Position numbers and translations under genes: made by a program | The notes under the pieces: generated by a model | Told to the model about the DNA's origin: nothing | Database searches by the model: none | The model's input: only the letters and a program-made list of their open reading frames with translations | Source of the DNA: Candidatus Competibacteraceae bacterium | GTDB lineage: Bacteria > Pseudomonadota > Gammaproteobacteria > Competibacterales > Competibacteraceae | Direction of reading: 5' to 3' | Assembly: GCA_003989085.1 (NCBI GenBank) | Contig: RXIV01000003.1 | Location: 186,001 to 250,000, forward strand | DNA length: 64,000 nucleotides | Part shown: piece by piece, positions 57,173-61,808 of the stretch | Layout of the letters: each line of letters opens with the position of its first letter | Position numbering within the stretch: position 1 is the stretch's first letter

Positions 57173-57826
57173 TCACCTTGTCAACAGCACAATCCACGCA
57201 CCTAGCGCAATAGTGCCGGCCAGCAATCCGATGATCAGAACTTTATTGAATTGTGCTGTTGTACCTTCCCGCAGTTGCCGGTTCTGATCCTGTAAAGCCT
57301 TCTCCAGTGTGACTCGCAGTTGCTCATTGGCCGTGGCGGTGCGCTGATCCAAGGCAGCGATGGTGTGTTGCTGGGCGGTGATCATCTGCGTGACCGAGGC
57401 TTGCAAAGCGGCCAGATTCTGTTGCAACTCTTGGTGGATTTGCTGATGACGGGTGACGGTGGTCTGCGCGGCAGCCTGTTCCTGTTGCAACTGAGCGGCG
57501 AGTTCGCCAAGGCGGGTGTAGGCCTGTTGCTGGTGATCGGCCAGCAGGGTTTCCAAATGCGTCTGCTGTTGGCGGATCGGCGCTTCCAGTTGTGCCAGCC
57601 GCGCCTCGGCCTGTTGCCGGACGGTCGCAAATTCTTGGGCGTAGCGCTCGGGCAAGCGGGCGGCTTCGTCGATGAGCGATTGCAGACGTTCATAGCGCGC
57701 CTGTAAGTCCTGAAAGGCAGTCTGAATATCCGGCAAGGCGCGCAGGGCGCTAATGGCGTCCTGAAGTTGGTTTTCCAGCCGGGTGATTTCGGCTTCAAAC
57801 GCTTCGATTTTCATGGGCAGGGTCAC
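57173..57826 (-). CDS. Coiled-coil protein with C-terminal membrane helix
   Basis: The 217-residue protein is a long coiled coil from residue 8 to about 185, rich in Gln, Glu and Ala (IEAFEAEITRLENQLQDAI, LEAPIRQQQTHLETLLADHQQ), ending in one hydrophobic helix (VLIIGLLAGTIALGAWIVLL). It should be anchored in the inner membrane with the coil in the cytoplasm. The start is 4 bp after the stop of the large helicase gene, so both belong to one operon. I do not recognise a named family. Its pairing with a helicase-nuclease suggests a membrane partner of a defence system, but that is inference. Confidence 0.75.
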   Translation of the reverse strand: MTLPMKIEAFEAEITRLENQLQDAISALRALPDIQTAFQDLQARYERLQSLIDEAARLPERYAQEFATVRQQAEARLAQLEAPIRQQQTHLETLLADHQQQAYTRLGELAAQLQQEQAAAQTTVTRHQQIHQELQQNLAALQASVTQMITAQQHTIAALDQRTATANEQLRVTLEKALQDQNRQLREGTTAQFNKVLIIGLLAGTIALGAWIVLLTR

Positions 57827-57830
57827 AGCG

Positions 57831-60800: not shown

Positions 60801-61808
60801 CCGGTTGCGGGGGGCAATCAGGTACAAGTCGAGTTCGGGTAGTGTGATCGATAATCCGTAAAATTCAGCCACTCGCTCGACCAGACCGAGGGTGTCAATG
60901 AGCGCAAGGGTCAGGATCGGCATTCCACCGCCGATTTCGGCGACGGTGAGGCGCGTCAAGCCCCGTTCGCCGGCGCGGGCCAGCAGAGCCAGGGCGGTGC
61001 GTTGCGCGTCCGGGTAGCGTTGGGGCAAGACGACCAGTAGCCAGGCCAGATGCAGCAAATCTAATGGCTCGGCGGGTTCCAGCAAGGACCGTAACCGGGC
61101 GTCCTGCTCGATGAGACTACGGAGCGCCGGTTCGGCTTCGCCGTCTTTCACCTGATCCCAACTCATTGGGAAGTATTCAAAATCCGCTTTGGTTAATTCC
61201 TGTTGGCGGGTTCTCTCGCGGTTAAACCGTTGCCGGGCTTCCTCGCGGTCGGGCAGATGCGCCCCATCGTGATAGGTTCTACCTTCAATCTCCAGTGCAT
61301 AGCGCCGTTCCCCCTCCAGCACAAAGTCTATGCGGCGCGATCCTGCAAACGGCACTTGTGGTTTCAGATAGCGCAACCCGTCCAGGCCGCACAGTGGAAC
61401 AAAGACCCGCTCGATAAATTGCCGCTCCGCCCAGTGTTCATCCTGCTTGTCGCTCTCGTCGTGTTCCAGTCGGTAGTGCTGGAAATAGGCGTCGGGCGAA
61501 GAGAATTCCGGAGTCCGTTCAACATCGAGAGTTTTCAACCGCTCCAGCAACTCATCCGGTTCCGTGTGCCAGTAGTGGTAGGTAACGTGTTGGCCGCCTT
61601 CAAAATTGAGTTGTGTCGGCGGATAGAACACACATTTGAAGCGTTCGGGGGCTTGCCTGGCGGCGCTGTCCAGCACGGCCAACCGGATCGGCAACGGCAA
61701 TGCGCCCAGCGGTTCCTCTGGGGTCGGCCCCAGCAGGGTGCAGCCGCAGAGGTGATAGCTTAACGGCCAGAGGTCGGTAGAATTGGGGAATTCATCCATC
61801 ATAATCAT
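57831..61808 (-). CDS. Large RecQ-like helicase with N-terminal nuclease-like domain
   Basis: This 1325-residue protein has a RecQ-type helicase core: Walker A [10 protein letters not shown] near residue 466, DEAH in [20 protein letters not shown] near 566, and [10 protein letters not shown] near 836, then a RecQ zinc site with CRRVILL...YKCELCDVC near residues 1090-1116. Ahead of this, residues about 130-200 carry [24 protein letters not shown], a DUF559/Vsr-like PD-(D/E)XK pattern. A zinc ribbon (CPQC and CQDC, about residues 739-770) is inserted in the second helicase lobe, which is unusual. The C-terminal 200 residues are helical. It overlaps the upstream frameshifted gene by ATGA and is followed by the coiled-coil protein. 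It resembles phage-defence helicases in build, but I cannot match it to a named system. Confidence 0.85.
   Translation of the reverse strand: [1325 protein letters not shown]

What the first reader, a model, noticed from the sequence alone, without database searches (positions are those of the whole stretch)
57173..61808. Candidate new defence unit: RecQ-like helicase-nuclease plus coiled-coil membrane protein
A 1325-aa protein joins a DUF559/Vsr-like nuclease pattern, a RecQ helicase with an inserted zinc ribbon, a RecQ zinc site and a helical tail. Four bases later starts a coiled-coil protein with one C-terminal membrane helix. The pair lies in a tRNA-integrase island. I cannot match the pair to a defence system I know; a cytoplasmic DNA processor with a membrane partner would fit an abortive or DNA-degrading system.
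Basis: partly seen in the sequence, partly recalled or inferred. Interest (0 to 1): 0.72.

Follow-up and report, generated by a model that had tools for sequence, protein, structure and literature searches.

The report
RecQ helicase-nuclease with coiled-coil partner
Two adjacent bacterial genes, a large DNA-unwinding and probably DNA-cutting enzyme and a rod-shaped membrane protein, travel together across distant bacteria and, in two groups, sit inside antiviral gene clusters, so they probably form a little-known defence unit against invading DNA.

Summary
The window has a 1325-aa RecQ-clade helicase with an N-terminal Vsr/DUF559-type nuclease fold, three conserved four-cysteine clusters and a helical tail. 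Directly after it comes a coiled-coil protein with one C-terminal membrane helix.

In all 12 independent lineages with readable downstream DNA (Competibacteraceae, another gammaproteobacterium, Oscillochloris, Thermomicrobium, Thermus, Deinococcota) a coiled-coil gene follows the helicase, usually overlapping it or within 16 bases.

The helicase forms its own clan (bootstrap 100) apart from ordinary RecQ, topoisomerase III-RecQ and PsyrT. It fails the DpdF, PsyrT and RecQ-equivalog tests. No named system was found that contains the pair.

Context supports defence in two lineages. In Thermus the pair opens an operon with an Eco57I-type methylase and a PLD-SNF2 helicase (DISARM/ARMADA-like). In Deinococcota it sits between a YprA-like helicase and a RelE-UvrD gene, near ShosTA-like genes. 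Elsewhere the pair stands alone, or sits on mobile DNA, as in this window.

Best reading: a two-gene helicase-nuclease module that destroys invading DNA, bridged or tethered by its co-translated partner; it works like Druantia III or ARMADA but is built on RecQ. Function is inferred; no activity was tested.

The parts
57831..61808 (-). RecQ-clade helicase-nuclease, 1325 aa
   Evidence: ORF; RecQ family TIGR00614 259.9 bits over cut-off 219.8; DEAD, Helicase_C; own clan, UFBoot 100
61089..61439 (-). N-terminal Vsr/DUF559-type PD-(D/E)xK nuclease domain, residues 124-240 (E128, D161, E173, E175, H180)
   Evidence: AlphaFold2 model, VIA Z 9.1 to 3r3p (97 of 98 residues) and 8.4 to 3hrl; motif conserved in types A and B; MTES_1575
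59973..60479 (-). RecA1 / DEAD domain, residues 444-612 (K469, D568-E569-A-H571)
   Evidence: Pfam PF00270 1.1e-22; motifs invariant
59496..59591 (-). Zinc-ribbon insert in RecA2, C740-C771
   Evidence: four cysteines conserved in all family members except Oscillochloris
59277..59441 (-). RecA2 motifs V-VI, residues 790-844
   Evidence: PF00271 1.5e-8
59124..59231 (-). Second four-cysteine cluster, C860-C873-C885-C895 (zinc or Fe-S undecided)
   Evidence: invariant in all 14 aligned members
58464..58547 (-). RecQ-type zinc site, C1088-C1115
   Evidence: PF16124 2e-4, below its gathering score; four cysteines invariant
57879..58406 (-). C-terminal helical repeat tail, about residues 1135-1310
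   Evidence: AlphaFold2 helices, mostly pLDDT 53-88, lower at the very end; weak TPR matches
57173..57826 (-). Coiled-coil partner with C-terminal membrane helix, 217 aa (GTG) or 213 aa (ATG at 57814)
   Evidence: heptad periodicity above all 200 shuffles; downstream of the helicase in 12 of 12 lineages
57185..57241 (-). Membrane helix of the partner, VLIIGLLAGTIALGAWIVL, followed by only LTR
   Evidence: Kyte-Doolittle 19-residue mean 2.53
55941..56822 (-). Tyrosine integrase of the island (context, not part of the pair)
   Evidence: Phage_integrase 5e-29
55859..55934 (+). tRNA-Phe(GAA), likely attachment site
   Evidence: ARAGORN and Rfam; 3' half repeated at G000:C3:278370-278419

Best explanation
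A two-gene defence module against invading DNA. The RecQ-clade motor loads on single-stranded regions of incoming or replicating phage or plasmid DNA, unwinds it, and feeds it to its own N-terminal Vsr/DUF559-type nuclease; where that domain is missing, nucleases elsewhere in the cluster would cut. The extra zinc or cysteine modules and the helical tail recognise DNA and partners. The co-translated coiled-coil protein binds the helicase, probably through its more conserved N-terminal stretch, and holds the complex at the inner membrane by a tail anchor (types B and C: possibly a basic amphipathic end). Shown: domains, intact motifs, conserved coupled linkage, own phylogenetic group, defence operons in two lineages. 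Inferred: unwinding, cutting, complex formation, membrane tether, anti-phage effect. No methylase lies beside the pair here, so self and foreign DNA would have to be told apart by DNA state (ends, gaps, forks) or by a trigger.
For: Vsr-type fold and intact nuclease motif; all helicase motifs intact; coiled-coil gene next to the helicase in 12 of 12 lineages; own clan, bootstrap 100. Thermus operon: recQ, CC-TM, Eco57I methylase (IIG-type, DrmMI and PglX matches), small genes, PLD-SNF2 helicase (DrmD 3e-34, C3a139 HKD+Snf2 4e-31). Deinococcota operon: YprA-like helicase, RecQ, CC, RelE-UvrD (GajB-like; the same make-up as ArmD of ARMADA type II, PMC12458937), then HAD-PRTase (ShosT/PsyrT-like) and DprA-like (ShosA 7e-77). 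Sporadic occurrence (5 of 39 in its own family, 2 of 369 in its class, 7 of 111 Deinococcota), an integrase island here, and plasmids in Thermus, Thermomicrobium and Deinococcus.
Against: No activity was tested. In two Competibacteraceae the pair sits between housekeeping genes (TPR and lolB) and in Thermomicrobium beside respiratory genes; only two lineages have named defence genes next to it. The nuclease domain is absent in Thermomicrobium (type A) and in type C. Partner homology across the three subtypes is only weakly supported by sequence. No hit among IMG/VR viral contigs.
Confidence: 0.55

Rival explanations
1. A plasmid or mobile-element maintenance module: the helicase helps the element replicate or resolve, and the coiled-coil protein tethers it to the membrane for segregation.
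For: In Thermus the pair follows parA-parB directly; plasmid hits in Thermus, Thermomicrobium and Deinococcus; tRNA-integrase island in the window; near phage-like replication genes in G765 and G780.
Against: No ParAB beside it in Competibacteraceae, Thermomicrobium or Deinococcota; in G751 and G773 it sits between chromosomal housekeeping genes; it does not explain a Vsr-type nuclease or the methylase, ShosTA-like and RelE-UvrD neighbours.
Confidence: 0.17
2. A DNA-repair accessory: a specialised RecQ for damaged or stalled forks, with the coiled coil as scaffold.
For: RecQ core; presence in Deinococcus and Thermus; stable chromosomal position in two Competibacteraceae.
Against: Patchy distribution; the host already has a topoisomerase III-RecQ fusion; operons with defence genes.
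Confidence: 0.14
3. A toxin-antitoxin-like abortive pair comparable to RqlH-RqlI/PsyrTA: the helicase-nuclease is genotoxic and the coiled-coil protein restrains it until infection.
For: RqlH alone is genotoxic and is held in check by its operon partner RqlI (PMC4670107); coupled gene order; ShosTA/PsyrTA-like genes beside the type C copies.
Against: No PRTase domain, which carries RqlH toxicity; the partner is a coiled coil, not DprA-like; PsyrT score 207 bits against 714-1006 for true members.
Confidence: 0.12

Closest known systems
Druantia type III (DruE helicase-nuclease + DruH)
   Same: Compact two-gene logic: a very large zinc-rich helicase-nuclease plus one partner (PMC13192584).
   Different: DruE is a YprA-family helicase with PLD domains; here the motor is RecQ-clade with an N-terminal Vsr-type nuclease, and the partner is a small coiled coil, not YjiT-like DruH. 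PADLOC DruE matches only motifs V-VI (4.7e-5).
ARMADA / DISARM
   Same: ARMADA YprA helicases also carry a Vsr-type nuclease and zinc modules in RecA2 (PMC12458937). Thermus copies sit with a PglX/DrmMI-like methylase and a SNF2 helicase; Deinococcota copies with a YprA-like helicase and an ArmD-like RelE-UvrD.
   Different: RecQ instead of, or next to, YprA; nuclease at the N-terminus; the coiled-coil partner is not part of these systems as described; the window copy has no methylase or second helicase.
PsyrTA / RqlH-RqlI
   Same: RecQ helicase coupled to a second gene; ShosTA/PsyrTA-like genes near type C copies.
   Different: No PRTase domain, partner not DprA-like, 207 bits against 714-1006 for true PsyrT, separate clan.
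Dpd system (DpdF)
   Same: PADLOC's best-scoring label for the helicase (DpdF, 1.6e-77).
   Different: RecQ-core similarity only: NCBIfam DpdF 138 bits against cut-off 550; ordinary RecQs of other bacteria score up to 230.
Zorya / Kiwa (membrane component plus DNA-acting component; own knowledge and PMC13192584)
   Same: Membrane component linked to a DNA-acting component.
   Different: No MotA/TolQ-type channel; a single tail anchor; no sequence relation beyond coiled-coil background.

Membership tests
RecQ helicase family (broad) | TIGR00614 recQ_fam score above 219.8 bits | tested here: met
   259.9 bits
RecQ helicase family (broad) | RecQ zinc site of four cysteines | tested here: met
   C1088, C1109, C1112, C1115 invariant in 14 members; PF16124 22.4 bits, just under its cut-off 25
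RecQ equivalog (housekeeping RecQ) | TIGR01389 cut-off 640.2 bits | tested here: not met
   253.8 bits
Vsr/DUF559/MTES_1575-type nuclease | Restriction-endonuclease-like fold with D-x(n)-ExE motif | tested here: met
   VIA Z 9.1 and 8.4 over the whole domain; motif conserved in types A and B
Vsr/DUF559/MTES_1575-type nuclease | Pfam MTES_1575 gathering score 38.2 | tested here: not met
   16.4 bits in the window protein, 25.0 in L030: a divergent relative of the fold, not a family member by profile
DpdF / Dpd system | NF041063 above 550 bits | tested here: not met
   138.3 bits; ordinary RecQs score as high or higher
DpdF / Dpd system | Neighbouring dpd genes | tested here: inconclusive
   No dpd-like gene recognised among the neighbouring frames by reading them and by Pfam of six; the neighbours were not all scanned with dpd models
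PsyrTA / RqlHI | RecQ-PRTase fusion with a DprA-like partner | tested here: not met
   No PRTase domain; partner is a coiled coil; true PsyrT 714-1006 bits against 207
Druantia III | YprA-family DruE with DUF1998/MZB domain, plus DruH | tested here: not met
   No MZB/DUF1998 match; DruE match limited to motifs V-VI
ARMADA | YprA-like helicase + BrxHII-like helicase + PglX-like methylase | tested here: not met
   None recognised beside the window pair. In Thermus a methylase and SNF2 helicase of these broad types are present with RecQ in place of YprA
Anti-phage defence system | Protection against phage or plasmid in a test strain | not testable with these tools
   Needs an experiment

The most novel reading that the evidence does not exclude
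A third helicase lineage, RecQ, was independently equipped like the YprA-type defence helicases (Vsr-type nuclease, zinc modules in RecA2) and, with an obligatory coiled-coil tether, became a portable effector core: a stand-alone membrane-tethered two-gene defence in Competibacteraceae, and an interchangeable or additional motor in DISARM/ARMADA-like arrays of Thermus and Deinococcota.
Probability: 0.37. Interest if true: 0.76.

Novelty: new variant of a known kind. Interest (0 to 1): 0.62.

Why it matters
If true, defence arrays built around a large helicase-nuclease are not limited to the YprA and SNF2 lineages. The same architecture arose on RecQ, best known as a genome-repair enzyme, with a small dedicated coiled-coil partner that may place it at the membrane where foreign DNA enters. 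The pair is only two genes, so the open question of how methylase-free helicase-nucleases tell invading DNA from their own could be tested directly, and the Thermus, Thermomicrobium and Deinococcus versions offer material for structural work.

Tried and rejected
DpdF label (PADLOC): rejected, because ordinary RecQs score as high or higher on the DpdF model. PsyrT label: rejected. A methyltransferase-like reading of residues 250-415 (MidA, PRMT5, SAM methyltransferase hits, Z about 5-7): rejected as weak, and the glycine motif is not conserved in the family. The C-terminal model gave only weak TPR-like hits. A clean empty site could not be shown: three congeners share the tRNA-Phe/mutY flank and lack the pair, but the DNA beyond differs in each. 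Single-protein pattern scan of genome contigs found nothing; the alignment scan found six loci, an undercount, since genome searches found more. IMG/VR scan: no relative. Phage records: only ordinary RecQ cores. Promoter scan: none found; terminator-like sites no more than in shuffles. Paper searches with RecQ, DUF559, coiled-coil and defence-island terms found no description of this pair; the library is open-access only, so absence is weak evidence.

Full report
What is there. On the minus strand, 61808-57831 encodes a 1325-aa protein; four bases after its stop a GTG, or 16 bases after it an ATG, opens a 217/213-aa gene ending at 57173. The ATG is favoured because the two closest relatives start there. 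Both genes are under purifying selection against the relative in another Competibacteraceae genome: helicase 74% identical, pN 0.16 and pS 0.63; partner 45%, 0.33 and 0.73. The host is a Competibacteraceae bacterium by its nearest relatives.

Anatomy of the large protein. Residues 124-240 form an alpha-beta-beta-beta-alpha-beta domain, predicted with pLDDT mostly 60-89, that aligns over nearly its whole length with the catalytic domain of I-Bth0305I (Z 9.1, 97 of 98 residues) and with NGO0050 (Z 8.4). E128, D161, E173 and E/D175 are kept in every member that has the domain. Residues about 430-860 are the two RecA domains with all motifs. Of 14 aligned members only Oscillochloris lacks the first. 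The tail is a helical repeat with weak TPR-like matches. Residues 250-415 are an alpha/beta region without a convincing match.

Anatomy of the partner. Its heptad-band hydrophobic periodicity exceeds all 200 composition-preserving shuffles; the same holds for the seven other partners tested. In the subgroup of the window (type A) a strong membrane helix sits at the extreme C-terminus, followed by 1-6 residues, as in a tail-anchored protein with a cytoplasmic coil. The Oscillochloris contig ends before that point.

Relatives and linkage. Searches of plasmids, GTDB genomes and whole genomes gave a rare, scattered family: 5 of 39 genomes in its own family, 2 of 369 in its class, 7 of 111 Deinococcota, 1 of 400 Chloroflexota. 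In 12 independent lineages the DNA after the helicase could be read, and in all 12 a coiled-coil gene follows on the same strand: window, G773/L019, G751, Oscillochloris, Thermomicrobium, Thermus, the second G824 copy, G780, G765, G342, D. wulumuqiensis, and G824/G816/G810. The start lies from about 17 bases inside the helicase gene to 16 bases after it, except where an insertion sequence lies between (T. thermophilus AA1-1).

Three subtypes. Type A (window, two Competibacteraceae, Oscillochloris, Thermus, Thermomicrobium, the second copy in the Deinococcota genome G824): nuclease present except in Thermomicrobium; partner about 190-220 aa with membrane helix (end unknown in Oscillochloris). 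Type B (G780, G765, G342): nuclease present; partner about 330-400 aa without membrane helix. Type C (Deinococcota): nuclease absent; partner 315-391 aa without membrane helix. In types B and C the last 35 residues hold the best or nearly best basic amphipathic window of the protein (rank 1 in four of five, 4 in the fifth), which may be a membrane-binding end; this is a suggestion only. Pairwise tests support homology of partner N-termini of the window with those of Thermomicrobium, Oscillochloris, Thermus and G824 (no shuffle of 150 reaches the observed score), and within B and within C; across types the signal is weak. A common origin of all partners is therefore inferred mainly from position.

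Is it a known family? A tree of 531 core columns separates types A, B and C from six ordinary RecQs or topoisomerase III-RecQ and five PsyrT with bootstrap 100. The DpdF label that PADLOC gives comes from the shared RecQ core: the NCBI DpdF model gives 138 bits against a cut-off of 550, and ordinary RecQs across Gammaproteobacteria reach 230 bits on the same model with none over the cut-off. True PsyrT proteins score 714-1006 bits, this one 207. The three papers on YprA-type systems, BREX and Dnd that were searched do not mention RecQ.

Context. Thermus: parA, parB, recQ, CC-TM, Eco57I-type methylase (type IIG, DrmMI and PglX matches), small genes, PLD-SNF2 helicase (DrmD and HKD+Snf2 matches). 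Deinococcota: 175-aa gene, YprA-like helicase with MZB and HAD domains, RecQ, CC, RelE-UvrD, then further on HAD-PRTase and a DprA-like gene matching ShosA at 7e-77; in D. wulumuqiensis a HAD-DprA gene follows the coiled coil directly. ARMADA type II as described has a RelE-fused GajB-like helicase and a YprA helicase with a Vsr-type nuclease and zinc modules (PMC12458937), so this RecQ resembles those motors in equipment while belonging to another lineage. Elsewhere context is neutral: between TPR and lolB genes in two Competibacteraceae, beside respiratory genes in Thermomicrobium, next to a Schlafen/AlbA gene or an ImmA/IrrE-type peptidase on mobile-looking DNA in type B.

The island. tRNA-Phe and an integrase flank the pair. 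The tRNA's 3' half recurs as a 50-bp repeat (96% identical) at G000:C3:278370-278419, giving a 36.5-kb segment whose bulk looks like polysaccharide-synthesis genes (read from sequence). Three congeners have the tRNA-Phe/mutY flank at 80-83% but neither integrase nor pair after it. DNA beyond the tRNA differs in each congener, and one congener has the window's post-tRNA terminator directly after its own tRNA, so the exact borders are unproven.

Mechanism. Established for RecQ enzymes in general (own knowledge): 3'-5' unwinding of partly single-stranded DNA. Inferred here: the N-terminal nuclease cuts while the motor runs; the partner dimerises, binds the helicase and, in type A, anchors it to the inner membrane. 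No methylase was recognised beside the pair in the window, so target choice must rest on DNA state or a trigger. The faster divergence of the partner (45% against 74%) would fit a sensing or docking role, but coiled coils also diverge fast without such a role.

Limits. No function was tested. The two structure models have mean pLDDT of 58 and 60 and are useful only for single domains. The genome sample is one per species. The paper library is open-access only. Confidence that this is a defence module: about 0.55.

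Noticed in passing
window 56875-57083 (+): Open stretch reading like the C-terminal end of an IS3-type transposase (WVAWFNHHRLLEPIGSIPPAEAE) between integrase and coiled-coil gene; probably a remnant.
   Followed up: no
L052:4722-7859 (-), genome G810: The type C coiled-coil gene is fused in frame to the RelE-UvrD helicase gene (one 1045-aa frame; ParE and UvrD domains found by Pfam), which hints that the two products act together; it is a draft assembly.
   Followed up: partly
L020:5477-6463: The Oscillochloris coiled-coil protein contains near-identical tandem repeats of roughly 85 aa, and its helicase is the only one without the RecA2 zinc ribbon.
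   Followed up: no
L019:11442-12008 and L030:13351-13989: Between these two genomes the partner genes are far closer at silent sites (dS 0.22) than the helicase genes beside them (dS 0.91), as if the partner had been exchanged by recombination.
   Followed up: partly
G000:C3, L014:2688-6455 (+): Just outside the island's right repeat the host carries a topoisomerase III-RecQ fusion of 1255 aa.
   Followed up: partly
L053:6562-11980, genome G824: A second, type A copy in a genome that also has type C; its helicase gene is interrupted by an insertion sequence while the coiled-coil gene stays intact.
   Followed up: partly
L021 (RFGC01000030.1): A contig filed under an Acidobacteria MAG carries a Thermus-like parB-recQ pair, probably a binning error.
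   Followed up: no
L050:2400-17095, genome G824: Deinococcota array of YprA-like helicase (with HAD domain), RecQ, coiled coil, RelE-UvrD, HAD-PRTase and ShosA-like DprA: a many-part defence locus that fits none of the systems read about here and deserves its own study.
   Followed up: partly
window 62374-63467 (+): Possibly broken Rpn/DUF4351-type gene (DUF4351 1.6e-7 on the second half) followed by a PIN-domain gene at 63654.
   Followed up: no
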